The position numbers were made by a program, and so were the translations under genes. The notes under the pieces are model-generated. The model saw only the letters and a program-made list of their open reading frames with translations. It was not told the DNA's origin and made no database searches. From the NCBI RefSeq assembly GCF_018417475.1, contig NZ_CP054856.1, forward strand, positions 2,635,001 through 2,699,000: DNA of 64,000 nt. Direction: 5' to 3'. Of the stretch, positions 6,445 through 54,303 are shown piece by piece; within the stretch, counting starts at the first letter, position 1; every line of letters begins with the position of its first letter. Source of the DNA: Novosphingobium decolorationis (GTDB lineage: Bacteria > Pseudomonadota > Alphaproteobacteria > Sphingomonadales > Sphingomonadaceae).

Positions 6445-6559
6445 CCGAGGGCCATCGCCCTCGGGCTCCCCGAACTTGTCGACTTCACCTTGAGAGCATG
6501 ACCTTGGCCGGGAAACGAGAGGTCACCCATTCCGGGGTCAAGGGGCGATGGGCCCTTGA
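6445..6559 (+). repeat. Intergenic palindromic element, copy A
   Basis: A 115-bp copy in forward orientation. Hairpin P lies at 6445-6464 (CCGAGGGC paired with GCCCTCGG), then a central arm beginning CTCCCCGAA and returning as TTCCGGGG, then hairpin Q at 6538-6559 (TCAAGGG/CCCTTGA). It fills the gap between the LOG gene and thiD, which converge. Hairpin Q has one GGG/CC imbalance relative to the other copies. Confidence 0.85.
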
Positions 6560-6566
6560 AAGAATC

Positions 6567-7316
6567 CTATCGGACCGCCTGGTGCCCCATCGGGCCATGC
6601 CCGGCGCCCAGCCCCGGGGCCGCGCTGAGGGCGCGGCGCACGAATTCGCGCGCGCCTTCGACCGCCTCGGGCAGCGACAGGCCCTGCCCCAGGCCCGTCG
6701 CAATCGCGCTCGAAAGCGTGCAGCCGGTGCCGTGGGTGTGGCGGGTGACAATGCGCGGTGCGCGCCAGATGACCGGGGCCTCGCCCGGCACCATCAACCG
6801 GTCCTCGACCACGTCGCCTTCGGCATCGCCGCCCTTGGCAAGGTAGGCCACGCCTAGCGCTTCCAGGGCCGCATCGCCGCCCAGGGCTTCGAGTTCAGGC
6901 ACGTTGGGCGTCGTCAGCGCGGCGCAGGCCATGAGCCGGGAGAAGGCCGCGATCGTTGCCGCATCGGCCAGCACCGATCCCGATGTCGCGACCATGACCG
7001 GATCGAACACGACAGGCACGCCCAGTTCCTCCAGCCGCGCGGCCACCACGTGCGCGATCTCGGCCGAACCCAGCATGCCGATCTTCACCGCATCGACCCC
7101 AATGTCGCTGACGCAGGCATCGATCTGCGCGCCCACCATCTCGGGCGAGAGCGCGACGACGTCGGTCACTCCGCAGGTGTTCTGCGCCGTGATCGCGGTG
7201 ATCGCGGTCATGGCGTAGCCGCCCAGCATCGTGATCGTCTTGATGTCGGCCTGGATGCCCGCTCCCCCTGAGGAATCCGAGCCGGCGATGGAAAGAATAC
7301 GAGGAGGTGTGGTCAT
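6567..7316 (-). CDS. thiD: Hydroxymethylpyrimidine/phosphomethylpyrimidine kinase
   Basis: A 249-residue ribokinase-fold enzyme that phosphorylates HMP and then HMP phosphate for thiamine synthesis. The N-terminal SIAGSDSSGGAGIQADI stretch, VFDPVMVATSG in the middle and the C-terminal HGTGCTLSSAIA (anion hole and catalytic Cys/Asp region) are diagnostic. It is the last gene of a glmM-DUF1272-thiD operon, starting 13 bp after the DUF1272 stop behind a GGAGG-containing site. No other thiamine gene or TPP riboswitch is seen nearby. Confidence 0.92.
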   Translation of the reverse strand: MTTPPRILSIAGSDSSGGAGIQADIKTITMLGGYAMTAITAITAQNTCGVTDVVALSPEMVGAQIDACVSDIGVDAVKIGMLGSAEIAHVVAARLEELGVPVVFDPVMVATSGSVLADAATIAAFSRLMACAALTTPNVPELEALGGDAALEALGVAYLAKGGDAEGDVVEDRLMVPGEAPVIWRAPRIVTRHTHGTGCTLSSAIATGLGQGLSLPEAVEGAREFVRRALSAAPGLGAGHGPMGHQAVR

Positions 7317-7329
7317 GGCCTGAGGCTTG

Positions 7330-7560
7330 TCACTTGGCCTTGTAGCGGCGCACCTTGGACGGCGGCGCGGCGTCGTGGTGCTTCTTGGCGCGGGTCGGGC
7401 GGTCGGTCAGCTCGCCCCCGCATTCGGGGCACAGGTCATCGAGATCCTCCGCGCATTCCGCGCAGTAGGTGCACTCGAACGACCAGATGAAGGCGCCGGG
7501 CGCTTCGGCGGGAAGATTGGCGCCGCAGCGCGCGCAATCGGGACGCATTTCCAGGGCCAT
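7330..7560 (-). CDS. DUF1272 zinc-ribbon-like small protein
   Basis: A 76-residue protein matching the DUF1272 pattern: LEMRPDCARCGANLP, then FECTYCAECAEDL, then CPECGGEL. Four CxxC pairs suggest one or two structural zinc ions. The function is unknown in the family. Its ATG shares one base with the glmM stop (TGATG), so translation is probably coupled. The basic tail (RAKKH, KVRRYKAK) could bind nucleic acid, but this is a guess. Confidence 0.85.
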   Translation of the reverse strand: MALEMRPDCARCGANLPAEAPGAFIWSFECTYCAECAEDLDDLCPECGGELTDRPTRAKKHHDAAPPSKVRRYKAK

Positions 7561-8900
7561 CAGCCGGCTACCTCTTCAATCGCAGTGCAGATCGCGGCGA
7601 CCACCGCCTCGACCTTGGCGGCATCGTCGCCCTCGGCCATGACCCGGATCACCGGTTCGGTGCCCGAGGGACGGATGACAAGGCGGCCCTCGCCGCGCAG
7701 CGTGTTCTCGGCCTCGGCGATGACGGCCTGCACCCGCGCATCCTCCAGCGGCTTGCCGCCTGCAAAGCGCACGTTGCGCAAGAGCTGAGGGACCGGATCG
7801 AAGAGGTGGAGCACCTCGCTCGCCTTCTTGCCCGACTGGACCAGCGCAGCGAGCACCTGGAGGGCCGCCACGGTGCCATCGCCGGTCGTCGCATGGTCGA
7901 GCAGGATCATGTGGCCCGACTGCTCTCCGCCCACATTGAAGCCGCCCGACTTCATGCGTTCGAGCACGTGCCGGTCGCCCACCTTGGTGCGCTCCAGCGT
8001 CAGCTCAAGGCCCTGGAGGTAGCGCTCCAGGCCCAGGTTCGACATGACCGTGGCCACCACGCCCCCGCCGCGCAGCTTGCCGCGCGCGGCCATCTGTGTG
8101 CCGAGCAGCGCCATGATCTGATCCCCGTCCACGACCTTGCCGTTCTCGTCGACGACGATCAGCCGGTCGGCATCGCCATCGAGCGCAATGCCGATGTCGC
8201 AGCCGCCCGAGACGACCGTCTCCTGCAAGAGGTCGGGATGGGTCGAGCCGCAGGCCTTGTTGATGTTCTTGCCGTTGGGCGTCACGCCCACCGTCACCAC
8301 TTCGGCGCCCAGTTCCCAGAACGCGGATGGGGCGACCTGGTAGGCCGCGCCATTGGCGCAGTCGACCGCGATCTTGAGGCCATCCAGCCGCACCGTATTG
8401 GGCAGCGAGGCCTTCACGGCGTGGATGTAGCGCCCGCGCGCGTCATCGATACGCCGCGCCCGGCCGATCTCCTCGGCATCGGCAAGCTCCAGGTCCTCGC
8501 CCAGCATCTTCTCGATCGCCAGTTCGTCGGCGTCGGAGAGCTTGAAGCCATCGGGGCCGAAGAGCTTGATGCCGTTGTCCTCGTAGGGATTGTGGCTGGC
8601 CGAGATCATCACGCCGACATCGGCGCGCAATTCGCGGGTGAGCAGCGCGACCGCGGGCGTGGGCATCGGGCCCAGCAGGATCACGTCCATCCCCACGCTG
8701 GTGAAGCCGGCGGTCATCGCGTTCTCGAGCATGTAGCCCGACAGGCGCGTGTCCTTGCCGATCACCACGCGGTGGCGGTGGGTGCCGCGCTGGAACAGCT
8801 TGCCCGCTGCCTGGCCGACCTTGGCGGCCATCGCGGCGGTCATCGCGCCCTGGTTGGTGCGGCCGCGAATGCCGTCGGTTCCGAAGAATTGCTTGCTCAT
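7560..8900 (-). CDS. glmM: Phosphoglucosamine mutase
   Basis: A 446-residue alpha-D-phosphohexomutase that interconverts glucosamine 6-phosphate and 1-phosphate, supplying UDP-GlcNAc for peptidoglycan and LPS. It has the N-terminal FGTDGIRG, the phosphoserine loop [12 protein letters not shown] near residue 100, the metal-binding DGDADR near 242, the sugar-binding GGEQSGH near 325 and the C-terminal phosphate loop [12 protein letters not shown]. Length is normal for GlmM. It leads the glmM-DUF1272-thiD operon and is divergent from the SDF transporter gene. murA and galU at 52-54 kb use products of the same pathway. Confidence 0.97.
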
Positions 8901-9031
8901 GCCTGTCCGTCACCTGCCGTGCGTCTTGCAAATTGCCATGCCGCGCCGGGCTGGTAATGTCACCCCCCTCGCCCGTCCTTTCACCCGGATGCGCCTTTTC
9001 CTACCCCCTCCAGACACGACCAGGGACCTTG

Positions 9032-10312
9032 ATGACCGAGCCTTCCAGCGCCAGCCGCATGCCCGAGATCCGCGTTCCGGGTCTCCTCACGCTGGGCGGC
9101 CTTCTGGCCGGGCTGGCCGCGGGCGCCCTGTTCAAGGGGTCGGCACCGCTGCGCGATATCCTGATTCTGGCAGAGCCGCTGGGCGACCTGTGGCTGCGCG
9201 CGCTCAAGATGACGATCCTGCCGCTGGTCGCAGGGCTGCTGTTCACCGGCATCGTCGAGACCGCCGCGGCCGCGCAGGCGGGCACCATGGCTCGCCGCAC
9301 GCTCGGCCTCATCGTGGGCGTGCTGGCGGCCAGCGCCTGCCTCGGCGGCCTCCTGATGCCGCTTCTCCTGCGTCTGTTTCCCGCCCCCACGCTCGATCTT
9401 GCAGGCCACGGCGAGGCGCCCGAAGCCAACCTCCCCGGCCTTGGCGATTTCCTCGGCTCGCTCGTCCCCTCCAACGTGCTGGGCGCGGCGGCCGAGGACG
9501 CGATGCTGCCGGTGATCGTCTTCGTCGCGCTTTTCGCACTGGCCTCCACCCGCCTCGCCGAAGAACCGCGCCGTCAGCTCGCCCTCCTGTTCGAGGGGCT
9601 TGCCGGCGCGATGATCGTCGTCATCGGGTGGGTGCTCAGACTGGCGCCGCTCGGCGTCTTTGCGCTCGGCCTGTCGCTTGCCGCGCGCACCGGCGCGGCG
9701 GCGATCGGCACTCTAGGCCACTACATTCTGCTCGTCGGGGCGCTGGGCGCGGTGTTCCTGCTGACCGCCTATCCGCTCGCGGTGCTGGTCGGGCGGCGAC
9801 GGATCGGTGCCTTTGCCCGCGCGGTCCTGCCCGCGCAGGTCGTGGCGGTTTCCACCCAATCCTCGCTCGCCAGCCTGCCCGCAATGCTGGCCGCCGCACG
9901 CGCGCTGCGGGTTCCTGCCACGGCAGCCGAATTTGCGCTGCCCCTCGCAGTCACGCTGTTTCGCGCGACGGGCCCTGCGATGAACGTCGGCGTCGCCGTC
10001 TACGCCGCGCAGCTCGCCGGGTACGAACTTTCGGCCAGCGCCATCGCGGCGGGTGTCCTCGTCGCCTTCGTCACCACCTTCGGCACGGTCTCGCTTCCCG
10101 GCACGGTCAGCTTCATCGCCTCCACCGGGCCGATTGCCGCCGCGATGGGCGCGCCGCTCTGGCCGCTTGGCATCCTTGTCGCCGTCGAGATGCTGCCCGA
10201 CATCATGCGCACGCTGGGCAACGTGACGATGGATGTCGCGGTGACGACGGCGGTGGCAGGAGAAGAGAGAGGCGAAGGCGATGCCGCGCCCGACGCGCCC
10301 ACAGTCCACTAG
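9032..10312 (+). CDS. Dicarboxylate/amino-acid:cation symporter (SDF family), divergent
   Basis: A 426-residue inner-membrane protein with about eight hydrophobic segments. It shows the SDF hairpin serine motif as TQSSLASLP and the LKMTILPLVAGLLFTGI segment typical of the family. The usual NMDGT substrate/cation motif is replaced by an ATGPAMNV stretch, so substrate and coupling ion may differ from DctA or GltP. The ATG at 9032 is chosen over upstream in-frame starts because it follows AGGGAC and gives the family's usual N-terminus. It ends 10 bp before the convergent HNH gene, with no hairpin between. Confidence 0.82.
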   Translation: MTEPSSASRMPEIRVPGLLTLGGLLAGLAAGALFKGSAPLRDILILAEPLGDLWLRALKMTILPLVAGLLFTGIVETAAAAQAGTMARRTLGLIVGVLAASACLGGLLMPLLLRLFPAPTLDLAGHGEAPEANLPGLGDFLGSLVPSNVLGAAAEDAMLPVIVFVALFALASTRLAEEPRRQLALLFEGLAGAMIVVIGWVLRLAPLGVFALGLSLAARTGAAAIGTLGHYILLVGALGAVFLLTAYPLAVLVGRRRIGAFARAVLPAQVVAVSTQSSLASLPAMLAAARALRVPATAAEFALPLAVTLFRATGPAMNVGVAVYAAQLAGYELSASAIAAGVLVAFVTTFGTVSLPGTVSFIASTGPIAAAMGAPLWPLGILVAVEMLPDIMRTLGNVTMDVAVTTAVAGEERGEGDAAPDAPTVH

Positions 10313-10322
10313 GACCCAGTGC

Positions 10323-10931
10323 CTAAGGCTCCAGTTCGATGTCCCAATACAGCCAGTCGCGCCAGGTCTCGTGCAGGTAGTTGGGCGGAAAGGCCTTTCC
10401 GCGGTCCTGCAGCTGCCAGCTGGTCGGCTTGATGGGCGCAACCATGGGCGGCATGTTCGCCTGCTTGGGCGTGCGCCCCCCCTTTCTAAGGTTGCAGGGC
10501 GAACAGGCGGTGAGGATGTTCTCCCAGCTCGTCTTTCCGCCCAGACGCCGCGGGACCACGTGGTCGAAGGTCAGGTTGTGCGGCGATCCGCAGTACTGGC
10601 ACGTGAACTTGTCGCGCAGGAACAGGTTGAAGCGCGTGAAGGCGGGAAACTCGGAGGGTTTGACGTAGTCGTGGAGCGCGATCACCGAGGGGATCTGCAT
10701 CGTCCAGCTGGGGCTGCGCACCGCCCGGTCGTAGCACGAGACCACGTCCACCTTCTCCAGCACCACCGCCTTGATCGCGGTCTGCCAGGGCCAGACACTG
10801 AGCGGGTAATAGGAGAGCGGCGTGTAATCCGCATTGAGAACGAGCGCAGGGCAGTCCGAAAGACTTCGGGAGGGATCATCCTCCGCGCTGCGGAAACGGG
10901 CCGCGCGCTCTATCAGCTCCGATCTGAGCAT
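10323..10931 (-). CDS. HNH endonuclease-domain protein
   Basis: A 202-residue protein with a C-terminal HNH nuclease domain: CQYCG, then FDHVVPRRLGG, then SWENILTACSPCN, which gives the zinc-binding CxxC/CxxC and the DH catalytic pair. An N-terminal region of about 100 residues (LNADYTPLSYYPLS) is shared with chromosomal HNH proteins widespread in Alphaproteobacteria, whose function is not established. There is no neighbouring methylase, integrase or intron, so a mobile or restriction role is not supported. A GGAGG lies two bases before the ATG. Confidence 0.8.
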   Translation of the reverse strand: MLRSELIERAARFRSAEDDPSRSLSDCPALVLNADYTPLSYYPLSVWPWQTAIKAVVLEKVDVVSCYDRAVRSPSWTMQIPSVIALHDYVKPSEFPAFTRFNLFLRDKFTCQYCGSPHNLTFDHVVPRRLGGKTSWENILTACSPCNLRKGGRTPKQANMPPMVAPIKPTSWQLQDRGKAFPPNYLHETWRDWLYWDIELEP

Positions 10932-11095
10932 GGCCTCCTGTCGCAGGCCGTGATGACAAGTTCATGGCAGCACATGAAGTCTTTTGCAGCACTTGCGCGA
11001 CTCGGCGTCAAGTCCCCTATGGTACAGCCCTGCCGAAATGCGACGAACACCTGCGCGCTGATCAGAACAACATCTTCACTTCACGAGCCTTTTTC

Positions 11096-11932
11096 ATGAC
11101 CCGTACACGCTTTGCGCCCAGCCCCAACGGCTCGCTTCACCTGGGCCATGCCTATGCCGCCATCGTTGCGCACGATCTGGCCCACGAACGCGGCGGAGAA
11201 TTCCTCGTGCGCATCGAGGACATCGACGGTGCGCGCAGCCGCCAGGAACTCGCCGAGGAGGCGCTGAAAGACCTTGCCTGGCTGGGCCTCGCCTGGGACG
11301 GACCGGTGCGCATCCAGTCGCGCAACGTCACCGCGCACGTGGCCGCGGGCGAGCGCCTGAAGGCAATGGGCCTCCTCTATCCCTGCCGCTGCACCCGCGC
11401 CGAAATAGCCGCAAATGCCACCCGAATGGGACCCGATGGGCCGGTCTACCCCGGCACCTGCAACCACCGCGCCCTCGATCCCGAAGGCGCGGCCTGGCGC
11501 ATCGACATGGAGGCGGCGATCTCACGCGCCGGGCCCCTCACCTGGGAGGACGGACGGGCCGGTGTGCAGCTGGCCGATCCGGCGCCCTACGGCGATGTCG
11601 TGCTGCTGCGAAAGGACCTTCCGGGCAGCTACCACCTCGCCGCCACGCTCGATGATGCCGCAGACGGTATCACGCTCGTGACGCGAGGCATGGACCTGTT
11701 CGGCGCCAGCCACATCCACCGCCTGCTCCAGGCCCTGCTCGCCCTGCCCGTGCCCACCTGGCACCACCACCCCCTGCTGGTCGAGCCGGACGGGCGCAAG
11801 CTGGCCAAGCGGCGCGGCTCACCCTCGCTCGCCGACCGGCGCCGCGCGGGCGAAGATGGCCCCGCACTCGCGGCGGCCCTGCGCGCCCATGCCTTCCCCG
11901 CTGGCCTTTCGCTGGGCGAAGGCGTAGCCTGA
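11096..11932 (+). CDS. gluQ: Glutamyl-Q tRNA(Asp) synthetase
   Basis: A 278-residue, truncated GluRS-like enzyme that attaches glutamate to the queuosine of tRNA(Asp). It has FAPSPNGSLHLGHA (HIGH-type motif), RIEDIDGAR, a zinc site from CRC and YPGTC, and KLAKR in place of KMSKS. It lacks the anticodon-binding domain, as expected for GluQ. The ATG at 11096 gives the canonical MTRTRFAPSP start; earlier in-frame codons would add 44 residues unlike the family. It is followed 4 bp later by the HIG1 gene. Confidence 0.92.
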   Translation: MTRTRFAPSPNGSLHLGHAYAAIVAHDLAHERGGEFLVRIEDIDGARSRQELAEEALKDLAWLGLAWDGPVRIQSRNVTAHVAAGERLKAMGLLYPCRCTRAEIAANATRMGPDGPVYPGTCNHRALDPEGAAWRIDMEAAISRAGPLTWEDGRAGVQLADPAPYGDVVLLRKDLPGSYHLAATLDDAADGITLVTRGMDLFGASHIHRLLQALLALPVPTWHHHPLLVEPDGRKLAKRRGSPSLADRRRAGEDGPALAAALRAHAFPAGLSLGEGVA

Positions 11933-11936
11933 GGCC

Positions 11937-12170
11937 ATGAGCACTCTACTCGTCATCGTCATTGTCGCCCTGATGATCGCAGTCGTGATCAGCCTCGTGC
12001 GCGGAATCATCGCGTTCCTGAACAGCACGAAGGAGGACCTCAACCGCGATCCCAACGAAACCGGCCCCTCCAAGAACCAGCAGATGCAGAACCGCATGAT
12101 GTTCAACCGCATCAAGTACCAGGCCGCCGCGGTCCTGGTCTGCGCGCTGCTTCTGGCCTTCACGCGTTAA
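11937..12170 (+). CDS. HIG1-domain twin-transmembrane protein
   Basis: A 77-residue protein with two membrane segments (about 3-27 and 58-75) joined by a polar loop, and a second-helix entry NRMMFNRIKYQAAAVLV that resembles the hypoxia-induced gene 1 domain. In mitochondria and some alphaproteobacteria such proteins associate with cytochrome oxidase, but a role here is inferred from family only. The start lies 4 bp after gluQ, so the two are probably cotranscribed. Confidence 0.75.
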   Translation: MSTLLVIVIVALMIAVVISLVRGIIAFLNSTKEDLNRDPNETGPSKNQQMQNRMMFNRIKYQAAAVLVCALLLAFTR

Positions 12171-12281
12171 GCCCCGCCACCTTTTTTCCAGGAAGCGATC
12201 CGACAGGCAGTTGCCCTTCCTTTGGGTGGTGCACGCGCCTTGGCCGCGCACTAGGAACAGCGCCCCCGGCGAGAGAGAACC

Positions 12282-13815: not shown

Positions 13816-13929
13816 TCAAGGGGCCATCGCCCCTTGACCCCATACCGGGTGACCTCGCCTTTCTCGGCCACCCTGGCGCGCGGGCGGTGAGGCCTCAAGT
13901 TCGGGGAGCCCGAGGGCGATGGCCCTCGG
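13816..13929 (-). repeat. Intergenic palindromic element, copy B
   Basis: A 114-bp copy in reverse orientation relative to copy A. Hairpin Q is at 13816-13837 and hairpin P at 13910-13929, with GGGTGACCTCGCC...GGCGGTGAGGCC forming the central arms. It begins 14 bp after the dehydrogenase stop and lies between two genes of the same strand, the only tandem placement in the window. Confidence 0.85.
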
Positions 13930-20468: not shown

Positions 20469-20500
20469 GGTACGAAGAGGCAGAAGCAGGAAGACATTTT

Positions 20501-20614
20501 TCAAGGGGTCATCACCCCTTGACCCCCAAACGGGCGACCTCACCATTTCCAGGCCACGTGGCGCGAGATCCGTGAGGTCGACAGTTTGGGGAGCCCGAGG
20601 GCGATGGCCCTCGG
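20501..20614 (-). repeat. Intergenic palindromic element, copy C
   Basis: A 114-bp copy in reverse orientation. Hairpin Q is at 20501-20522 with a compensated change (GGGGTCATCACCCC, pairing kept), and hairpin P at 20595-20614 is followed by AACCATTTTTTT, so on the plus strand P could work as a weak terminator. It lies between the 205-residue protein gene and trmB, which converge. Confidence 0.85.
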
Positions 20615-20636
20615 AACCATTTTTTTGCTTTTCCGC

Positions 20637-21356: not shown

Positions 21357-21478
21357 GGGCCGCGGCACTGGCAGGCAAGCGCGTGCGGGTCAATATTGCA
21401 CGTGGTGGGCGGGGCAGCTTGGCCTCGCTTTCCCGGTGCAGGGCGGATGATAGAAGAGAAGAAGAAGGAAGTCCTGAT

Positions 21479-21592
21479 TCAAGGGGTTATTACCCCTTGA
21501 CCCCCAAATGGGCGACCTCACCTTTCTCAGGCCATGTGGCGCGATAACCCTGAGGTCGCCAGTTTGGGGAGCCCGAGGGCGATGGCCCTCGG
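21479..21592 (-). repeat. Intergenic palindromic element, copy D
   Basis: A 114-bp copy in reverse orientation. Hairpin Q at 21479-21500 has GGGGTTATTACCCC in its loop-proximal part, again keeping the pairing, and hairpin P is at 21573-21592. Unlike all other copies it lies between two divergent genes (trmB and lrgA), upstream of both starts. Confidence 0.85.
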
Positions 21593-21732
21593 AATCACCT
21601 TTCTATCCTTGTCCGCACATGGCTTCGTGCCTTGAATCCACGCAAAGGACGAATTGCACGCACGCCCCGGCCCGGCCATACCTCCCGGATCAGCCCGCGC
21701 CGACCGCCTCTCCCAGAACCGGACCTTTCCCC

Positions 21733-22122: not shown

Positions 22123-22820
22123 GCGCTCTCGCCGGTCTTCTCGCTACCCCGCTCCTGTGGTTGGCGGCGACACTGGGCGTCTTCGAGATCTTTGAGCGCC
22201 TTTCCCAGCGCTCGGGGCGTCATCCGCTGTGCCACCCGGTGCTCTGGACCACGCCGGTGCTGATCGCGCTGCTCTGGGCCACGGGGACACCCTATGCCGA
22301 CTACCAGGCCGACACCTTCCTCCTCAGCTTCCTGCTCGGCCCGGCCGTGGTCGGTCTCGCCGTCCCGATCTGGGCGCAGCGCGAGCGCATCAAGCGGCTT
22401 GCCGTGCCGATTGTTCTGTCGCTCGCGGCAGGTGCGGTCACCTCGATCGTCAGCGCGGTCGGGATTCTCTCCCTCTTCGGGGCGCCTGCCGACATTCTCG
22501 CCTCGATTGCTCCACGCGCGACGACGACGCCGGTGGCGATGGCCATCGCCCAGCAGCTGGGCGGCGTGCCCGCGCTGGCCGCCTGCATCGTCCTGTTCGC
22601 CGGGATCGTGGGGGCGATGGTGGCCACCCCGCTCCTCAACGCAATGAAGTTCGACGACTATCGCCCGCGCGGCTTTGCCCTTGGCGTTTCCGCGCACGGG
22701 TTCGGAGCCGCACGCGCATTCCAGGTCAGCGAGACAGCAGGCGCCTTTGCGAGCCTGGGCATGGCGCTCAACGCGGTGATGACGGCGGCCCTGCTCTCGC
22801 TCCTCGCCGCGCTGCTCTGA
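22119..22820 (+). CDS. lrgB: LrgB family membrane protein
   Basis: A 233-residue integral membrane protein with about six hydrophobic segments. The ATTTPVAMAIAQQLGG stretch and the SAHGFGAARAFQ segment near the C-terminus are typical of LrgB/YohK proteins. The ATG overlaps the lrgA stop (ATGA), so the two are translated as a coupled pair. A long perfect hairpin separates it from the convergent ctrA. Confidence 0.9.
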   Translation: MSALAGLLATPLLWLAATLGVFEIFERLSQRSGRHPLCHPVLWTTPVLIALLWATGTPYADYQADTFLLSFLLGPAVVGLAVPIWAQRERIKRLAVPIVLSLAAGAVTSIVSAVGILSLFGAPADILASIAPRATTTPVAMAIAQQLGGVPALAACIVLFAGIVGAMVATPLLNAMKFDDYRPRGFALGVSAHGFGAARAFQVSETAGAFASLGMALNAVMTAALLSLLAALL

Positions 22821-22843
22821 TCCTCCCCGAATCGCGAAAAGCG

Positions 22844-22895
22844 CGAATCGAAACGGCCGGCAATTCCCTCAAGGAACGCCGGCCGTTTCGATTCG
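22844..22895. terminator. Long perfect hairpin between lrgB and ctrA, probable bidirectional terminator
   Basis: CGAATCGAAACGGCCGGC is followed by a 16-base loop and its exact complement, giving an 18-bp stem. There is no clean U-run on either strand, so termination is likely but unproven. The flanking sequence also repeats the motif (CGAATCGCGAAAAGCGCG) just upstream. Confidence 0.5.
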
Positions 22896-22918
22896 GTCAG
22901 ATCAGGATGCGGGTGCGC

Positions 22919-23614
22919 TCAGGCGACTTCCTGCATCTCGTCCGGATCGCGCAGGACATAGCCACGGCCCCAGACGGTCTCGATGTAGTTGGCCCCACCG
23001 CAGGCATGGCTGAGCTTCTTGCGCAGCTTGCAGATGAAGACGTCGATGATCTTCAGCTCGGGCTCGTCCATGCCACCATAGAGGTGGTTCAGGAACATTT
23101 CCTTGGTCAGCGTGGTGCCCTTGCGCAGGCTGAGCAGCTCCAGCATCGCGTATTCCTTGCCGGTCAGATGCACCCGCGCGCCATCGACCTCGACGGTCTT
23201 GGCATCGAGGTTGACGACCAGCTTGCCGGTGCGGATGACCGACTGCGAGTGCCCCTTGGAACGGCGCACAACCGCATGAATACGCGCGATAAGTTCTTCG
23301 CGGTGGAACGGCTTGGTGACGTAGTCGTCAGCGCCGAAGCCGAACGAGCGGACCTTGGAATCCATTTCCGAGATGCCCGACAGGATGAGGACCGGGGTCT
23401 GCACCTTGGCCACGCGCAGCTTCTTGAGCACGTCGTACCCGTGCATGTCGGGCAGATTGAGGTCGAGCAGTATGATGTCGTAGTCGTACAGCTTGCCCAG
23501 ATCGAGGCCTTCCTCGCCCAGGTCGGTCGAGTAGATATTGAACCCCTCGGCCGTGAGCATCAGCTCGATCGCACGCGCAGTGGTGGGTTCGTCCTCGATC
23601 AACAGAACTCGCAT
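22919..23614 (-). CDS. ctrA: Cell-cycle response regulator CtrA
   Basis: A 231-residue OmpR-type response regulator. The receiver has [13 protein letters not shown], the phosphorylated Asp in [15 protein letters not shown] near residue 51, and [12 protein letters not shown]. The winged-helix DNA-binding domain includes [15 protein letters not shown] and [11 protein letters not shown], almost invariant in alphaproteobacterial CtrA. In Caulobacter it silences the origin and controls division and motility genes. In sphingomonads it is thought to regulate motility and envelope genes. It is transcribed from the 218-bp gap holding TTAA clusters and a GANTC site. Confidence 0.97.
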
Positions 23615-37240: not shown

Positions 37241-37262
37241 GCGGCCAGAAAGAAAGAGATAT

Positions 37263-37376
37263 CCGAGGGCCATCGCCCTCGGGCTCCCCGAACGGTCGAC
37301 CTCACCTTGCGCACGCCAGATTGGCTGAGAAAGGTGAGGTTGCCGATTCCGGGGTCAAGGGGCGATGGCCCCTTAA
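37263..37376 (+). repeat. Intergenic palindromic element, copy E
   Basis: A 114-bp forward copy with the clearest internal symmetry. Hairpin P is at 37263-37282, central arms GACCTCACCTT and AAGGTGAGGT pair around GCC...GGC, and hairpin Q is at 37355-37376 (one end mismatch, TTAA for TTGA). It lies between the convergent chemoreceptor and catalase genes. Confidence 0.88.
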
Positions 37377-37398
37377 GATAAGAATTCTACTTCGTCGC

Positions 37399-47954: not shown

Positions 47955-48257
47955 TTTACTTCCCGGTTCCTGGTCTGTGTCGGCAGGGATCGGCCCAGAG
48001 GTTGGCCCTGCGGTCCCCGACATGTTGCATTGCCTCTATAACCGCCATTGCCTCGGAGCAAGAGCGCCCTTGCCTTTGATGCTGCCGCAAACGGGACAGC
48101 CCAGGCCGTGGGCGAGCCTGGATCTGGCGCCCTGTAGAGCCGCTGGCAGGTAAACCCGCGATGAATGGTGGCCTGTCCTCGGCCTTGGCCTCCCTCTTGA
48201 GCCACGCCGGTGCGATCACCATTTCCCCTTCCGGCTCAGACTGTGTTAAGAAGAATC
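47955..48257. other. Divergent intergenic region between DUF3576 and the OMP-tail gene
   Basis: About 300 bp with no gene I can support. It must hold the promoters of both flanking genes. Open frames here have no good start or composition. No copy of the repeat family and no strong hairpin with a T-run are present. Confidence 0.35.
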
Positions 48258-49106
48258 GTGCAAGACCAAGACGCCATGATCATGGCCAGTGCGCTGGCCA
48301 CCACACGGGAGTGCCTCGACGTGACCGCGCAGACCCCTGCTCCACCCCCGACAGAAGCCCCGGCCGCTTCGCGCGGCGGTGTGCGAGCCGGTGCCCTGCT
48401 GGCAGGATCGGTCGGTCTGCTCGCGCTGCCCAGCGCAGTCATGGCCTTTTCCGCGTCGTTCCATGGCGAGGATCCGCAAGGCGAAAGCCTGGGCTCGCTG
48501 GAATCGCAGGCCTCGGGCGAAACGCTCTCGCGCGCGGTTGCCATGCGCTCGCTCGCCAAGGGCGGCGAATTCGCCTTCACCCCGGCCGGTACCCCGCATC
48601 GCCCCGAACGCTCGGTGCTGGTGGTCGTGCGCGACGATCCGGTCGCGGCCAAGGCGATCATCGTGCGCGGACGCTATCAAGCGCCCAAGGCGGAAAGCCC
48701 GCGCGCAGCCGCCAATCCGCAGATCGCCGCCAGTTCGTTCAGCCTGGGTACGTCGCGCGGGTACCAGAACTTTGCACAGGACCTCGTCAAGCCTTCGGAG
48801 AAGCGCTCCGTGGCCGCCCTGCCCGACCTCCAGTCCTACAGCCTGACGCCGGGCACCAGGGAGGAAAAGGAATCGCGCTTCACCCCCCGCATCTCGATCG
48901 ACGAGAAGCGCGCGGCGGGGCGTGCCCCCCGCACCTTCGCGGGGATCGAAGGCGAGGTGGACCTGGGCGGCGCCTACCGCGTGGCCAAGAACCTCAACGT
49001 CACGGCGGGCGTGCGTTACTCGCAGGACCGGGAACGCCTGCAGCCGCTCACCGATGGCCGCCAGGACAGCCAGGCGGTCTATGTCGGAACCCAGTTCAGC
49101 TTCTGA
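48258..49106 (+). CDS. Membrane/secreted hypothetical protein with an OMP-like C-terminus
   Basis: A 282-residue protein. A hydrophobic segment near residues 44-64 (GALLAGSVGLLALPSAVMAF) is preceded by about 40 polar residues, so it may be a signal anchor or a long signal. The middle is polar. The last 50 residues (GEVDLGGAYRVAKNLNVTAG, then AVYVGTQFSF) look like two or three outer-membrane beta-strands ending in Phe. Starts at GTG 48258 and ATG 48276 are both plausible; GTG has AAGAAG upstream. No family is recognised. Confidence 0.65.
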   Translation: MQDQDAMIMASALATTRECLDVTAQTPAPPPTEAPAASRGGVRAGALLAGSVGLLALPSAVMAFSASFHGEDPQGESLGSLESQASGETLSRAVAMRSLAKGGEFAFTPAGTPHRPERSVLVVVRDDPVAAKAIIVRGRYQAPKAESPRAAANPQIAASSFSLGTSRGYQNFAQDLVKPSEKRSVAALPDLQSYSLTPGTREEKESRFTPRISIDEKRAAGRAPRTFAGIEGEVDLGGAYRVAKNLNVTAGVRYSQDRERLQPLTDGRQDSQAVYVGTQFSF

Positions 49107-49191
49107 CACTATTGCTAAATTGTTGAAATGTGACCGCTAGCTGCCTGTAATTCGCAGGCACGCAAGCGCAGTTGCACTTGTCGCACCCTTA

Positions 49192-49207
49192 ATTCGCCAG
49201 GGCGAAT
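49192..49207. promoter_or_regulatory. Interrupted palindrome upstream of phaB
   Basis: ATTCGCC-AG-GGCGAAT, a perfect 7-bp inverted repeat with a 2-base spacer about 90 bp upstream of the phaB start, within an AT-rich upstream region. It could be a dimer-binding operator. No regulator is known for it, so confidence is low. A second short stem-loop (TGCCTG/CAGGCA) lies at 49142-49160. Confidence 0.3.
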
Positions 49208-49295
49208 GCAAATATCGCCACACTGAGCTTGCCGCATTCCTATTCCTTTCTTAGCAATGTGCTTGGTGGATGCACACGAAAGCGAAAGGCTGAAT

Positions 49296-50018
49296 ATGGC
49301 ACGCGTTGCGATTGTTACTGGCGGCACCCGCGGTATCGGAGAGGCTATTTCCCTGGCTCTGCAGGACAGGGGCCACAAGGTTGTTGCGAGCTACGCAGGC
49401 AACGATGAAAAGGCCAAGGCCTTTACCGACAAGACGGGAATCCCTGCCTACAAGTGGGACGTGGGCGACCACGAAGCGACGCTCGAAGGCGTGGCCCGGG
49501 TCGCCGAGGAAGTCGGTCCGGTCGACATCGTCGTCAACAACGCGGGTATCACCCGCGACGGCGTGCTCCACAAGATGAGCTTCGAGGACTGGAACGAGGT
49601 GATGCGCATCAACCTCGGCGGGTGTTTCAACATGGCCAAGGCCACCTTCCCCGGCATGCGCGAGCGCAAGTGGGGCCGCATCGTCAACATCGGCTCGATC
49701 AACGGCCAGGCCGGCCAGTACGGCCAGGTCAACTACGCCGCGGCCAAGTCGGGCATCCATGGCTTCACCAAGGCGCTCGCCCAGGAAGGCGCCAAGTACG
49801 GTGTCACCGTCAACGCGATTGCGCCGGGCTACATCGACACCGACATGGTCGCCGCCGTGCCCGCACCGGTGCTGGAAAAGATCGTCGCCAAGATCCCGGT
49901 CGGCCGCCTCGGCCACGCCTACGAGATTGCCCGCGGCGTTGCATTCCTGTGCTCGGAAAACGCCGAGTTCGTGACCGGCTCGACGCTGTCGATCAACGGC
50001 GGCCAGCACATGTACTAA
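49296..50018 (+). CDS. phaB: Acetoacetyl-CoA reductase
   Basis: A 240-residue short-chain dehydrogenase making (R)-3-hydroxybutyryl-CoA with NADPH for polyhydroxybutyrate. It has VTGGTRGIGEAI, NNAGITRDGVLHKM, the catalytic Ser of INGQAGQYGQVNY with YAAAKSG, and the PGYIDTDMV segment. The family member is PhaB rather than FabG because of the GQYGQVNYAAAKSGIHGF pattern. No phaA or phaC lies next to it. It is followed 6 bp later by the truncated element F. Confidence 0.9.
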   Translation: MARVAIVTGGTRGIGEAISLALQDRGHKVVASYAGNDEKAKAFTDKTGIPAYKWDVGDHEATLEGVARVAEEVGPVDIVVNNAGITRDGVLHKMSFEDWNEVMRINLGGCFNMAKATFPGMRERKWGRIVNIGSINGQAGQYGQVNYAAAKSGIHGFTKALAQEGAKYGVTVNAIAPGYIDTDMVAAVPAPVLEKIVAKIPVGRLGHAYEIARGVAFLCSENAEFVTGSTLSINGGQHMY

Positions 50019-50024
50019 AACACC

Positions 50025-50112
50025 AGGACGGGCGACCTCACCTTTCTCAGCCAAGGCGGCGCGCGGAAGGTGAGGTTGCCGGGATGGGGAGCCCGTGGGC
50101 GATGGCCCTCGG
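50025..50112 (-). repeat. Intergenic palindromic element, copy F (truncated)
   Basis: An 88-bp reverse copy that lacks hairpin Q. It opens directly with the central arm CGGGCGACCTCACCTTTCTC and ends with hairpin P at 50093-50112, where one stem base is changed (CCGTGGGC). It begins only 6 bp after the phaB stop and lies between the convergent phaB and HTH-regulator genes. Confidence 0.75.
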
Positions 50113-50136
50113 CAATCCTCTTTCCCCGACCTGGAC

Positions 50137-50910
50137 TCAGGACATCCAGTATCCAACCACCTTCCAGCGCCCCTCTTCCGGGCTGAGCGAGACGGTCTCG
50201 ATCACGTTCGCCTTATGGGCGAACGCGCTCTGGAACTTGACCACCTTGAGCCCGCTCGGCGGGCCGGGCACGGCCTCTTCGCCCAGCAGGCGGCGGGTGA
50301 CGACCTCGCCGAGCGGCGGGCGCACCTGGCCCGCAAGGCTTGCCCAGCGCGCGGCCGTATTCTGAGCCTGGAAGGCCTCTCCGGTTTCGGCCCAGCTCTT
50401 TTCCCATTCGCCTTCGTCGACAAGGTGCAGCCAGGCGCGCGCCGAGGCGACCGGCGCGCTCTCCACGCCGTGCGCCTCGGGTGCGGATTGAAGGGAGGCG
50501 GACGGGGACAGCATCAGAAGAGCGGCAACAAGGGCAAACGACATGGCAAGGACTCCACCGAGCGCCCAGACAAGAAGGGACCGGGTCTTCGAAGCGCGTT
50601 TCGGCTCCTCCCGGTCTGCTGTGCGATCCGGGCCGGGCGCAGCCCCCATTTCCGTGTCCCCTTGCAATTTGGGGGTCGAGTCCGCTCCCAGCCCCTCTTC
50701 GCGATCCAGGAGCAGACGGGCGGCCTCCCGGCTGCTCGAGACCGCCATCTTGCGACGCGCGTTGCGCAGGCGCTCGTGAATCGTGTGGACCGACAATTCG
50801 AAGTGGCGCGCCAGCGACTTGGCGTCATGCCCGCGCGCCATCAGCCGCAGCGTTTCCTTCTCCCGCTCAGTGAGGGCCGCGTACCCGTCCTGAAGGTCCC
50901 CTTCTGCCAT
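50137..50910 (-). CDS. LuxR-type HTH protein with transmembrane segment and DUF4019 domain
   Basis: A 257-residue one-component regulator. Residues 10-70 are a LuxR/GerE helix-turn-helix (LTEREKETLRLMARG, SVHTIHERLRNARRKM). A linker leads to a single helix at 111-134 (SLLVWALGGVLAMSFALVAA), and the C-terminal part (WLHLVDEGEWEKSWAETGE, GRWKVVGYW) fits DUF4019, probably periplasmic. DNA binding from the membrane is inferred. The ATG at 50910 is chosen; earlier in-frame codons are TTG. It has no obvious partner gene. Confidence 0.82.
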   Translation of the reverse strand: MAEGDLQDGYAALTEREKETLRLMARGHDAKSLARHFELSVHTIHERLRNARRKMAVSSSREAARLLLDREEGLGADSTPKLQGDTEMGAAPGPDRTADREEPKRASKTRSLLVWALGGVLAMSFALVAALLMLSPSASLQSAPEAHGVESAPVASARAWLHLVDEGEWEKSWAETGEAFQAQNTAARWASLAGQVRPPLGEVVTRRLLGEEAVPGPPSGLKVVKFQSAFAHKANVIETVSLSPEEGRWKVVGYWMS

Positions 50911-51033
50911 GATCCCATCTGTCTCCACGCGTAATCGCAATCACTTGCCCCGCAAAGCCTAGGGAGCGAACCGCATACAGGGCACCCCAAAAAAATCGTA
51001 GGCGGCCCGGGGGCGTGCCCCTATTGCAGGGGG

Positions 51034-51288
51034 ATGGTCTCCCCCTTTCACCCGCCCGTCAAACGCTCGGTGGAAATCGCCGGACACAAGACCTCGATCA
51101 GCCTGGAACCGGTGTTCTGGGACGCGCTGGTCTCGGCCGCCGAGGAAGAGCGCGTGCCGATCAACGCGCTTGTCGCGCGCATCGACCTCGAACGCGCGCA
51201 GGCCGAAGTGCCTCCCGGCCTTGCCAGCGCGATCCGCGTCTGGCTGATGCTGCGCTTTGCAAGTTCGGTGACCCCGCTTGAAGAGTGA
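51034..51288 (+). CDS. Ribbon-helix-helix DNA-binding protein
   Basis: An 84-residue protein with the RHH_4 pattern: RSVEIAGHKTSISLEPVFWD forms the strand and first helix, then VPINALVARIDLERAQ and IRVWLMLRFA. RHH proteins bind DNA as dimers and repress their own promoter; the target is unknown. The ATG lies directly after AGGGGG, very close for a ribosome-binding site, so a GTG at 51070 is a possible alternative. It stands alone between the HTH gene and element G. Confidence 0.78.
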   Translation: MVSPFHPPVKRSVEIAGHKTSISLEPVFWDALVSAAEEERVPINALVARIDLERAQAEVPPGLASAIRVWLMLRFASSVTPLEE

Positions 51289-51315
51289 GGAGACACGGGA
51301 ATCAGAAGAATAGTT

Positions 51316-51429
51316 CCGAGGGCCATCGCCCTCGGGCTCCCGGAACTGTCCAGTTCACCTTCCGCGCGCACCCTTGGCTGGGAGCGGTGAAGTAGATAGT
51401 TCCGGGGTCAACGGGCAATGGCCCCTTGA
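51316..51429 (+). repeat. Intergenic palindromic element, copy G
   Basis: A 114-bp forward copy. Hairpin P is at 51316-51335 and hairpin Q at 51408-51429 (TCAACGGGCAATGGCCCCTTGA, with two non-compensated changes). The central arms read GTTCACCTTCCG and GCGGTGAAGT. It lies downstream of the RHH gene, facing a convergent small gene. Confidence 0.82.
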
Positions 51430-51474
51430 ATCCGGCTTTCCTTCTCTCTTCGCCTTCCAACGCCCCAACGGGAA

Positions 51475-51504
51475 AGGGGCGGACAGCCTTTCGGCCCCGC
51501 CCCT
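51475..51504 (-). terminator. Terminator of the small DETFPASDA protein gene
   Basis: On the minus strand AGGGGCGG, a GC-rich 14-base loop and CCGCCCCT form a perfect 8-bp stem, followed by TTTCCC. The weak U-run makes this a likely but not certain terminator, about 35 bp downstream of the gene it would close. Confidence 0.45.
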
Positions 51505-51537
51505 CGGGTACGCTGCATCAGGGACATGCACGTGTAA

Positions 51538-51735
51538 TCAGTAGTTGGCGACCGCGTCGCTGGCCGGGAAGGTCTCGTCGAGCGCTTCGTCGGTCTTGGA
51601 CCACGTCCTGGGCGTGGTTTCCATGTTCGCGGCACCGGCATCGCGGACCTTGGGCGTCTCGCCCTTGTCCTTCTGCGTGTACTTGTAGAACGCGTAGCCT
51701 GCCGCACCGAGCGCGGCCATTCGCATAAGGCCCAT
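51538..51735 (-). CDS. Small membrane-anchored protein with DETFPASDA motif
   Basis: A 65-residue protein starting MGLMRMAALGAAGYAFYKYT, one short hydrophobic segment and then a soluble tail ending in DEALDETFPASDAVANY. The tail motif (DE-x-FPASD) occurs in many small stress-related proteins of Alphaproteobacteria; its function is unknown. The ATG at 51735 has AGGAG upstream. It follows murA by 70 bp on the same strand, so they may be cotranscribed. Confidence 0.75.
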   Translation of the reverse strand: MGLMRMAALGAAGYAFYKYTQKDKGETPKVRDAGAANMETTPRTWSKTDEALDETFPASDAVANY

Positions 51736-51805
51736 TGTCCAATCTCCTCTCAGGCGCCCTTGCGGGCGTTTGATGGGAAAATGCACAAGGGGCCCGTGCG
51801 GTTCC

Positions 51806-53089
51806 TCAATCGGCGCCGATACGTTCAATCTGTGCGCCGAGCAGCGCCAGTTTCTCTTCCAGACGCTCGTATCCGCGGTCGAGGTGGTAGAGGCGGTGCA
51901 CCTGGGTCTCGCCCTCGGCGGCCAGCCCCGCGATCACAAGACTCATCGAGGCGCGCAGGTCCGTCGCCATGACCTCGGCGCCGGTCAGCGTGTCGACGCC
52001 ATGGACGATGGCCGTGCGGCCCTTGGTCTCGATATGCGCGCCCATGCGGTTGAGCTCGGGCACGTGCATGTAGCGGTTCTCGAAGATCGTCTCGGTCAGA
52101 ACGCTGGAGCCTTCCGCCTTGCACAGAAGCGCCATGAGCTGGGCCTGCATGTCGGTGGCAAAGCCCGGGAACGGGGCGGTCGAGAGCGTAACCGGACGCA
52201 AGGGGCCATTGGCCGCGACGTAGAGGCCGTCCTCACGCGGCTCGACAAGCACGCCCGCATCGCGCAGCGCCTGCACGGTTGCTTCCATATCCTCGATCCG
52301 CGCGCCCTTGAGGAGGACCTCGCCGCCCGTGATCGCCGCCGCGCAGGCATAGGACCCCGCCTCGATGCGGTCGGGCATGACCATGTAGGTCGCCCCATGC
52401 AGGCGCGGCACGCCATGGATGGTAAGGTCCGACGTGCCGATGCCCTCGATCCGGGCGCCCATCGCGGTGAGCAGATTGCACAGGTCGACGATTTCCGGTT
52501 CGCGCGCGGCGTTGTGGAGCGTCGACTTGCCCTTGCACAGGACCGCAGCCATCAGCGCGTTCTCGGTCGCGCCGACCGAGACCACCGGGAACGAGAAGCG
52601 TCCGCCCGGAAGGCCGCCCTCGGGTGCAATCGCCTTCACGTAGCCCGCCGCCATCTCGATCTGCGCGCCGAGCGCTTCGAGCGCCTTCAAATGCAGGTCG
52701 ATCGGGCGGTTGCCGATGGCGCAGCCACCGGGCAGCGAGACAGTCGCCTCGCCCATGCGCGCCAGCATCGGGCCGAGCACCAGGATCGAGGCGCGCATCT
52801 TGCGGACCAGATCGTAGGGGGCAACCGTGCTGGTGATACGGGTGGCCTGCAGGGTCATCACCCGGCCGAAATCCTCCGGCCGCGAGCCCGCGATGGCCGT
52901 CGAGATGCCGAACTGGTTCATCAGGTGCTGGAAGCCGTCGATGTCCGCGAGACGCGGCAGATTGCGCAGCGTCAGCGGCTCCTCGGTCAGGAGGGCGCAG
53001 GGCAGCAGCGTGAGCGCTGCGTTCTTGGCGCCGGAAACGGGAATAGTGCCGGAAAGGCGTTTGCCGCCTTGAATAACGATCTTGTCCAT
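51806..53089 (-). CDS. murA: UDP-N-acetylglucosamine 1-carboxyvinyltransferase
   Basis: A 427-residue enzyme of the first committed peptidoglycan step, adding enolpyruvate to UDP-GlcNAc. The N-terminus [20 protein letters not shown], the catalytic Cys loop [14 protein letters not shown] (Cys also bound by fosfomycin), GATENALM and the C-terminal [15 protein letters not shown] are diagnostic. The ATG at 53089 follows GGGTGGGG. It is divergent from galU; both consume products downstream of glmM. Confidence 0.97.
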
Positions 53090-53231
53090 CCCCACCCATT
53101 TAGCGTGATTTGGCGCGCCAGCAAGCGCGCAACCATTGGCCGCTTCATGTGTTTGTGGAAGGGCTTGGTTGCACTGCAGCGCCGAAAACGCTTTAATTGC
53201 TTTGCAACATCTGAAGGGTACTGCGAGGTCC

Positions 53232-54113
53232 ATGACTGCCAACAACTTCCGAAAGCCAGTCCGCAAAGCCGTATTCCCGGTGGCCGGACTTGGAACCCGC
53301 TTCCTCCCCGCAACTAAAGCCATTCCAAAAGAGCTTCTCCCCGTCGTAGATCGCCCGCTTATTCAGTATGCGGTCGACGAAGCGCGCGAAGCGGGTATCG
53401 AGGAATTCGTATTCGTGACTGGTCGCGGCAAGACCGCGATTGTCGAGCACTTCGATACGGCCTATGAACTCGAAGCCACGATGAGCGGTCGTGGTAAATC
53501 ACTCGAACCGCTCGAGCCCACGCGCATGAAGCCCGGCAACCTCGTCACCGTGCGCCAGCAGGTGCCGCTGGGCCTGGGCCACGCGGTCTGGTGCGCCCGC
53601 GCGGTCACCGGCGATGAACCCTTCGCGATCTTCCTGCCCGACGAACTCATGTACGGCTCGCCGGGCTGCATGGCCCAGATGATCGAGGCCTACAACGAAG
53701 TCGGCGGCAACCTGGTTTCGGTGCTGGAAGTGCCCGAGAACGAGGTTTCCAGCTACGGCGTCATCAAGCCCGGTGCGGTGAATGGAAAGCTGACCGAAGT
53801 GAAGGGCCTCGTCGAGAAGCCCAAGGTGGAAGACGCGCCCTCCAACAAGATCGTCTCGGGCCGCTACATCCTCCAGCCCGAAGTCATGGGCCTGCTCGCC
53901 AGCCAGGACAAGGGCGCGGGCGGCGAAATCCAGCTGACCGACTCGATGGCCAAGCTGATCGACACCCAGCCCTTCCACGCCGTCACCTTCGAGGGCCAGC
54001 GCTTCGACTGCGGCTCGAAGCTGGGCTTCGTCGAAGCGACGCTCTCGATTGCTCTCGACCGCGAGGACATGGGCGAGGACGTTCGCGCGATGGCCAAGCG
54101 CATCCTGGGCTGA
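53232..54113 (+). CDS. galU: UTP-glucose-1-phosphate uridylyltransferase
   Basis: A 293-residue enzyme making UDP-glucose for glycan synthesis. It has [20 protein letters not shown] with the nucleotide loop, [26 protein letters not shown] and [12 protein letters not shown]. The ATG at 53232 follows GAGGT and gives the normal start; upstream in-frame codons lack a site. A strong terminator closes it at 54170. UDP-glucose could serve the sugar transferase at 41.8 kb. Confidence 0.96.
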
Positions 54114-54132
54114 TTGGCCCGGACCTTGCTGC

Positions 54133-54170
54133 AAAAAAGGGCGCTGTTCACACGAACAGCGCCCTTTTTT
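54133..54170 (+). terminator. Intrinsic terminator of galU
   Basis: A perfect 17-bp stem (AAAAAAGGGCGCTGTTC with GAACAGCGCCCTTTTTT), a 4-base ACAC loop and T-run. It lies 19 bp after the galU stop. Confidence 0.92.
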
Positions 54171-54190
54171 GATGTGCCAGACAGAGATAT

Positions 54191-54303
54191 CCGAGGGCCA
54201 TCGCCCTCGGGCCCCCGAACTGGCTGCCGCATCTTTCTCCCGCCCAGCTGGCTGGGGAAGGTGAGGTCGCCCGTTCTGGGGTCAAGGGGCAATGGCCCCT
54301 TGA
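54191..54303 (+). repeat. Intergenic palindromic element, copy H
   Basis: A 113-bp forward copy just after the galU terminator. Hairpin P is at 54191-54210 and hairpin Q at 54282-54303 (one loop change, CAAT for CGAT). The central arm AAGGTGAGGTCGCC is well kept on the right, while its left partner is more divergent. The neighbouring DUF2322 gene converges on it. Confidence 0.85.

What the first reader, a model, noticed from the sequence alone, without database searches (positions are those of the whole stretch)
6445..54303. An eight-copy family of ~114-bp triple-hairpin intergenic elements
The sequence shows eight copies (A 6445, B 13816, C 20501, D 21479, E 37263, F 50025, G 51316, H 54191), seven of 113-115 bp and one of 88 bp. 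Each has hairpin P (CCGAGGGC/GCCCTCGG) at one end, hairpin Q (TCAAGGGGC/GCCCCTTGA) at the other and an inverted repeat between. P and Q are near reverse complements at their cores, so the whole element is a large imperfect palindrome. Four copies lie in each orientation, all intergenic, six between convergent genes. Changed bases in the Q stems of C and D are compensated, which supports selection for the RNA or DNA fold. This is the shape of a BIME or MITE, and I know no name for it.
Basis: partly seen in the sequence, partly recalled or inferred. Interest (0 to 1): 0.78.

Follow-up and report, generated by a model that had tools for sequence, protein, structure and literature searches.

The report
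Dispersed paired-hairpin repeats at gene ends
In one group of Novosphingobium bacteria a 114-base element with a hairpin at each end is repeated, whole or in part, about two hundred times; in the stretch examined it mostly sits just after genes, looks built to stop transcription from both sides, and keeps its places while its inner sequence seems to be exchanged between copies.

Summary
In detail: all eight copies are there and belong to a large family. The P-hairpin core with its inner GCTCCC tag has 199 matches in this genome against 0 for a control pattern; a covariance-model search printed 66 distinct full-length places before its list was cut. The host is a Novosphingobium close to N. profundi EaN21-2. 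In 459 kb around the window I found 61 loci: 33 between convergent genes, 21 tandem (20 of 21 nearer the upstream gene's 3' end), 6 divergent, 1 over a weak ORF. So 33 of 71 convergent gaps hold one, against 27 of 368 others. Most end hairpins are followed on the outer side by a U/C tract, so the element reads as a terminator from both directions. The MITE reading fails on target duplications, the RAYT-driven REP/BIME reading on transposase and GTAG tag, although the architecture is REPIN-like. In EaN21-2 44 of 44 placeable sites are occupied (one by a remnant), but 13 of 31 middles are at most 75% alike, and in 11 of these another copy is closer. This suggests fixed sites with exchanged contents. 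More distant congeners have empty sites. Termination is inferred, not measured.

The parts
6445..6559 (+). Copy A (P 6445-6464, Q 6538-6559), between convergent LOG-family and phosphomethylpyrimidine-kinase genes
13816..13929 (-). Copy B (Q 13816-13837, P 13910-13929), 14 bp after a 3-hydroxyacyl-CoA dehydrogenase gene
20501..20614 (-). Copy C (Q 20501-20522, P 20595-20614), convergent genes
21479..21592 (-). Copy D (Q 21479-21500, P 21573-21592), between divergent trmB-like and lrgB-like genes; absent from F72
37263..37376 (+). Copy E (P 37263-37282, Q 37355-37376), between convergent chemoreceptor and catalase genes
50025..50112 (-). Copy F, truncated: P 50093-50112 with a broken pair, middle present, Q missing
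51316..51429 (+). Copy G (P 51316-51335, Q 51408-51429)
54191..54303 (+). Copy H (P 54191-54210, Q 54282-54303), convergent genes
37243..37262 (+). Purine-rich tract outside P of copy E (read from the - strand, the pyrimidine tract after P); typical of the copies
37377..37396 (+). Stretch outside Q of copy E; pyrimidine-rich in most copies (35 of 43 pass the tract rule), weaker in this one

Best explanation
A dispersed element, found so far only in Novosphingobium, with the architecture of a REPIN/BIME: two inverted modules, each [outer pyrimidine tract + GC hairpin + inner GGGGAGC or GGGGTC tag], around a variable palindromic middle. Each outer module works as an intrinsic-type terminator or 3'-end hairpin for transcripts arriving from the other side, so one copy closes two convergent genes, or the upstream gene of a tandem pair. 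The family expanded before the split from EaN21-2; since then sites have been kept while bodies are exchanged or flipped by recombination between copies. Shown: structure, copy number, position after stop codons, tracts, conservation, occupied sites, mismatched middles. Inferred: termination in vivo, recombination as the cause of the exchange, and the original spreading mechanism.
For: Position: 33 of 71 convergent gaps against 27 of 368 other gaps (Fisher p 2e-14); 20 of 21 tandem copies nearer the upstream gene's 3' end (median 27 against 157 bp). No orientation bias (30 +, 31 -). Tracts: a terminator-like tract (at least 10 of 12 pyrimidines and at least 4 T in 8) after Q in 35 of 43, after P in 34 of 43, at both ends in 28 of 43, against 4.5% of intergenic control windows. 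Conservation in the 25 orthologous pairs of equal length: P 97.6%, Q 95.1%, centre 73.6%, with fourfold sites at 85.2%. A second expansion, in G030, has the same layout and places: 10 convergent, 4 tandem, 0 divergent of 14 scored out of 20 loci. On plasmid MBES04p1 a copy lies between convergent annotated genes with 5 and 9 bases to spare. In-place change: 13 of 31 middles are at most 0.75 alike, in 11 of these another copy is closer, and 12 of the 13 have flanks of 0.82-0.99; one flip; one site reduced to a single P hairpin between the two tracts.
Against: No expression data. U content is modest (longest T run mostly 2-3). The independent terminator scan calls only 5 of the 15 element end hairpins in the two window stretches and finds no more terminators than shuffles (10 against 9.3; 4 against 11.5). 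By a stricter rule 22 of 34 element-bearing convergent gaps have a terminator in either direction and 5 of 34 in both, against 7 and 3 of 37 element-free gaps. Six of 61 copies, D among them, lie between divergent genes. P identity is the same between paralogues (97.1%) as between orthologues, so homogenisation rather than selection could keep it. A gene end is also a harmless place to insert, and stem-loops prefer convergent gaps in all bacteria studied in PMC1590033 (passages). The central stem is not maintained by compensation.
Confidence: 0.62

Rival explanations
1. RAYT-mobilised REPINs whose transposase gene has since been lost: selfish elements that accumulate after genes because insertion there is harmless.
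For: Inverted doublet with a long-hairpin and a clover fold, tandem array of 3.7 units of 169 bp, high copy number and intergenic placement match the REPIN description (PMC3116915, passages). Three genomes with a few core matches do hold PF01797 genes (G010, G020, G029).
Against: No PF01797 gene over the cut-off in G000, G166, G002, G030, G131 or G110, the six genomes with most core matches; no P-like hairpin at 30 PF01797 loci of relatives; tag is GGGGAGC/GGGGTC, not GTAG; outer pyrimidine tracts are not a REP feature that I know of (recalled).
Confidence: 0.3
2. mRNA 3'-end protection rather than termination: the hairpin blocks exonucleases after Rho-dependent release.
For: Position just after stop codons, strong hairpins; short T runs; such a role is known for E. 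coli REPs (recalled).
Against: The outer U/C tract at most ends is expected of terminators and not needed for protection.
Confidence: 0.2
3. A MITE of a DDE transposon.
For: Size, terminal inverted repeats; P and Q modules are homologous in inverted orientation.
Against: No target-site duplication within 30 bases: perfect 7-mers 0 of 43 observed, 0.46 expected by shuffled pairing; 5-mers 4 observed, 4.8 expected. Other transposase families were not searched.
Confidence: 0.06
4. A structured regulatory RNA class.
For: Strong folds.
Against: No Rfam match at the gathering score in the window except a tRNA, and only a weak hit (E 0.55, beside the element) in 251 bases around copy E; no orientation bias; the middle diverges freely.
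Confidence: 0.04

Closest known systems
REPINs / BIMEs of REP sequences (PMC3116915, PMC2817692; passages read)
   Same: Two inverted hairpin repeats around a linker, alternative long-hairpin and clover folds, high copy, intergenic, singlets and tandem arrays.
   Different: No RAYT in the six main carrier genomes, no GTAG tag, outer purine/pyrimidine tracts, strong tie to gene 3' ends, sites occupied alike over 15% fourfold divergence.
CGTC-tagged REPs without a dedicated transposase (PMC3733652; passages read)
   Same: Short palindromes in high copy with no linked transposase.
   Different: Tag is not CGTC; composite 114-bp unit; a word search of the paper's main text found no Novosphingobium or 'sphing'.
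RIME and ABC intergenic elements of Rhizobium (PMC2573895, passages; details recalled)
   Same: Alphaproteobacterial intergenic palindromic mosaics of about 100 bp, function unknown.
   Different: Different order of bacteria; sequences were not compared here.
ERIC / NEMIS (named in PMC1590033, passages; details recalled)
   Same: Roughly 100-130 bp imperfect palindromes between genes, transcribed with neighbours.
   Different: Different hosts; no modular end hairpins with tracts (recalled).
Bidirectional intrinsic terminators of convergent genes
   Same: Hairpin with A-rich side upstream and U-rich side downstream between convergent genes.
   Different: Here two hairpins and a middle, dispersed as a repeat family; U tract diluted with C.

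Membership tests
REP / BIME / REPIN (RAYT-associated) | High-copy short intergenic palindromes | tested here: met
   199 core matches, control 0; 60 of 61 loci intergenic by midpoint
REP / BIME / REPIN (RAYT-associated) | Two inverted copies forming one unit | tested here: met
   43 of 61 loci are standard-length doublets with P and Q
REP / BIME / REPIN (RAYT-associated) | GTAG tetranucleotide 5' of the palindrome | tested here: not met
   Conserved GGGGAGC before P and GGGGTC before Q; tag definition from PMC8266576 passages, where it is 'most often' GTAG
REP / BIME / REPIN (RAYT-associated) | RAYT (Y1/PF01797) gene in the genome, flanked by the repeats | tested here: not met
   None over cut-off in the 6 main carrier genomes; no P-like hairpin at 30 PF01797 loci of relatives; 3 minor carriers have PF01797
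CGTC REPs | CGTC tag at one end | tested here: not met
   Consensus of 37 copies has no CGTC at either end
MITE | Terminal inverted repeats | tested here: met
   P and Q modules align in inverted orientation
MITE | Target-site duplications | tested here: not met
   No excess of direct repeats around 43 copies
MITE | Autonomous transposon with the same ends | not tested
   Only Y1 transposases were searched
Intrinsic bidirectional terminator | GC-rich hairpin then U-rich tract in both directions | tested here: inconclusive
   Both ends qualify in 28 of 43 by a loose rule; stricter rules pass 5 of 34 gaps in both directions and 5 of 15 end hairpins in the window
Intrinsic bidirectional terminator | Lies just after stop codons | tested here: met
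Intrinsic bidirectional terminator | Stops transcription | not testable with these tools
   No expression data held
RIME | Sequence homology to RIME1/2 | not tested
   Sequences not fetched

The most novel reading that the evidence does not exclude
A portable terminator family without its own transposase: a repeat that has taken over the closing of nearly half of the convergent gene pairs in the region studied, whose sites are kept by selection while the bodies are rewritten in place by recombination between copies, so that site and content evolve separately. The same layout expanded at least twice in the genus (the G000 clade and G030).
Probability: 0.25. Interest if true: 0.75.

Novelty: new variant of a known kind. 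Interest (0 to 1): 0.55.

Why it matters
If these repeats terminate transcription, a selfish-looking family has become a standard way to end transcripts in part of a genus (33 of 71 convergent gaps in the region studied). That links repeat spread to host function in a testable way. The family is also a set of replicates for measuring exchange between short dispersed repeats, and it shows REPIN-like organisation in genomes where no RAYT was found.

Tried and rejected
RAYT-driven REP: rejected as membership, kept as an origin rival. MITE with target duplications: rejected. RNA family: no Rfam match beyond a tRNA at gathering level; a hit at E 0.55 near copy E is taken as chance. Compensatory evolution of the central stem: looked for and not found (131 one-sided breaks against 53 keeps, 26 two-sided breaks against 9 keeps). 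An apparent strand bias in the listing was dropped: known minus-strand copies are missing from the list, so it is a listing limit. A first reading as 'at least 150 copies' was dropped: one search shows that the model counts many places on both strands (110 matches for about 60 places), so only the 66 distinct G000 places printed are used. The figure of 34 of 43 convergent gaps of at least 100 bp is partly circular, because an element by itself makes a gap that long; the count over all 71 gaps is used instead. Complementary use of canonical terminators in element-free convergent gaps: such terminators are rare there (7 of 37 gaps). Phage records: no match; plasmids: one Novosphingobium plasmid. 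Paper searches listed no paper that I recognised as describing this element; most subscription journals are not in that library, the lists were capped, and I read passages of eight of the papers only.
Full report
WHAT IS THERE. The eight copies are at the stated coordinates. Oriented with P first, the unit is P hairpin (8 bp, loop CATC), GCTCCCC, a variable palindromic middle with the core CTCACC...GGTGAGGTCGCC, GGGGTC and Q hairpin (9 bp). Of 43 standard-length copies in a 459-kb region, 37 are exactly 114 bp. Copy E matches its own reverse complement at 73% over 105 bp, so P with its tag and Q with its tag are two inverted modules. Five of the seven complete window copies (C, D, E, G, H) have z-scores of -6.3 or lower; A, B and the truncated F are at -2.8 to -3.2. 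The best fold is a three-hairpin clover in some and one long hairpin in others.

HOW MANY. BLAST with copy E found 43 distinct places in the genome with only 40 candidates scored. The P core with tag, at most 3 mismatches, gave 93 forward and 106 reverse matches, control 0 and 0. These counts include second-strand matches of one place (110 matches for about 60 places in 444 kb); the printed part holds 66 distinct full-length G000 places. The region around the window is rich: 62 core matches in 459 kb against 199 in 4.75 Mb. In the region 61 loci pass E<1e-3. Of these 43 are standard length; the other 18 are truncated or longer forms, several of 205-231 bp in which P and Q, or P and P, enclose a third hairpin (GAGGGGCTTTGCCCCTC and variants). 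Reversed and shuffled sequence gave no hit at that level.

WHO HAS IT. trmB neighbours place the genome in Novosphingobium, next to EaN21-2 and BW1. The P core with tag (at most 2 mismatches) occurs in 55 of 149 genomes of the genus, own genome included: G166 209, G000 194, G030 148, G131 52, G002 24, G110 14, the other 49 having 1-6. In a sample of 246 genomes of the order 3 match, own genome included, all of one genus of 71. A 256-kb plasmid of Novosphingobium sp. MBES04 has three reported places (second-strand matches not excluded); the best lies between convergent annotated genes with 5 and 9 bases to spare.

WHERE IT SITS. With a codon-usage gene caller of my own (440 genes), 33 of 61 loci are between convergent genes, 21 tandem, 6 divergent and 1 overlaps a weak 46-aa ORF, judged by midpoint. 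Convergent gaps are 71 of 439, and 33 of 71 against 27 of 368 others hold a locus. Restricted to gaps of at least 100 bp the counts are 34 of 43 convergent, 21 of 115 tandem and 6 of 61 divergent, but an element by itself makes a gap that long, so this restriction is partly circular. In tandem gaps 20 of 21 lie nearer the upstream gene's 3' end. Orientation is even.

THE TRACTS. Outside P the DNA is 91-95% purine at positions -12 to -6, with T at -1 in 43 of 43. Outside Q it is 86-95% pyrimidine at +8 to +14, with A at +1 in 91%. Read from either side, the last hairpin is followed by a U/C tract: 35 of 43 after Q, 34 of 43 after P, both in 28, against 4.5% of intergenic control windows. T runs are short. 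The consensus scan of the 15 element end hairpins in two window stretches (both ends of B and P of C, E, G); these are three of the four best-paired calls in one stretch and the two best in the other, while its total counts do not exceed shuffles. By my stricter rule 22 of 34 element-bearing convergent gaps have a terminator in either direction and 5 in both, against 7 and 3 of 37 without an element.

A SECOND LINEAGE. In the 7-Mb genome G030 the same P module opens a longer element with its own middle (GCGCCGCAGGC hairpin), inverted GGGAGC tags and the same kind of outer tracts. Its right hairpin varies: GCGAGGGGG/CCCCCTCGC, GCAGGGGGC/GCCCCCTGC, GTGAGGGTG/CACCCTCGC (one G-U), GCGAGGGC/GCCCTCGC. 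I took 20 of its loci. The script looked for paired stems followed by a tract, so it could not count unpaired ones; it found one in 14 loci (for L238 probably not the homologous one). Of the 6 left over, by reading, four have a paired stem (L236, L244, L248, L250), one has a mismatch (L233) and I saw none in L245. Context of the 14: 10 convergent, 4 tandem, 0 divergent (one locus appears there twice). In F72 the copy-C site holds a diverged element in the other orientation, and site D has none (by reading).

HISTORY. At the copy-A site I compared the best 30 of 145 matching genomes. Three are filled (G000, G166, and G002 with a diverged one in opposite orientation), 9 have at most 30 bp between the gene ends, 17 have other sequence, and 1 lacked the second gene in the stretch held. 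Filled or not was judged by reading; one of the 17 was not printed. G166 is EaN21-2 (identical 8729-base stretch). There 44 of 61 sites could be placed and all 44 are occupied, 43 in the same orientation and 1 flipped; one of the 44 is a 36-bp remnant; the 17 unplaced include sites outside the fetched part. Of 52 G166 loci 42 match in the same orientation, 1 is flipped, 3 were called empty and 6 could not be placed. Two of the three empties are one event in which G000 keeps a single P hairpin between the tracts; at the third G000 has 884 bp of other sequence.

FIXED SITE, EXCHANGED BODY. Aligned sequence is 94.2% identical and fourfold sites 85.2%. In the 25 pairs of equal length P is 97.6% identical between orthologues and 97.1% between paralogues, Q 95.1 and 91.9, the centre 73.6 and 61.7; the orthologue is the best match in 12 of 25. 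Over all 31 pairs, middle identity is 0.75 or below in 13 and 0.79-0.93 in 18. In 11 of the 13 at least one of 30 other copies is closer than the orthologue; the same is true of 3 of the 18, with 2 ties. Flanks of 12 of the 13 are 0.82-0.99 alike, of one 0.72-0.77. Replacement by another copy is the simplest reading; a uniformly fast middle is the alternative and was not modelled.

MECHANISM. Best reading: paired 3'-end modules acting as a two-sided terminator. Termination, the exchange process and the original spreading mechanism are inferences. Selection on the hairpins is likely but not separated from homogenisation.

KNOWN KINDS. Architecture is that of a REPIN (passages of PMC3116915), but the GTAG tag (PMC8266576 passages) and the RAYT gene are both missing in the main carriers, so I do not file it as one. 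CGTC REPs lack a dedicated transposase as here (PMC3733652 passages), but the tag differs. Preference of stem-loops for convergent gaps is general (PMC1590033 passages), so position alone is not special.

Noticed in passing
window 22817-22922: A 45-nt inverted repeat between the convergent lrgB-like gene and its neighbour, unrelated to the element: another large hairpin at a convergent gap.
   Followed up: no
L253 1089-1715 (G000:C1 about 1417088-1417714): Tandem array of 3.7 units of 169 bp, each an element plus a spacer, like BIME-2 arrays.
   Followed up: partly
L252 1557-4541 (G000:C1 about 1616056-1619040): A 969-bp tandem repeat of 3.1 copies, 99% alike, with three partial and one full element match.
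   Followed up: no
L158, L168, L174, L177, L178 (copy-A site in other Novosphingobium): Other palindromic repeats (TCATTGCGAGCG... and CATCCTGAACTTGTTTCAGGAT...) occupy the same convergent gap, so the gap takes several repeat families.
   Followed up: no
window 20482-20624 and 21460-21602: Copies C and D are 87% alike over 143 bp including flanks, which suggests local duplication or conversion.
   Followed up: no
G000:C1 2400001-2859000: About a third of the genome's core matches (62 of 199) lie in a tenth of the genome; cause unknown.
   Followed up: no
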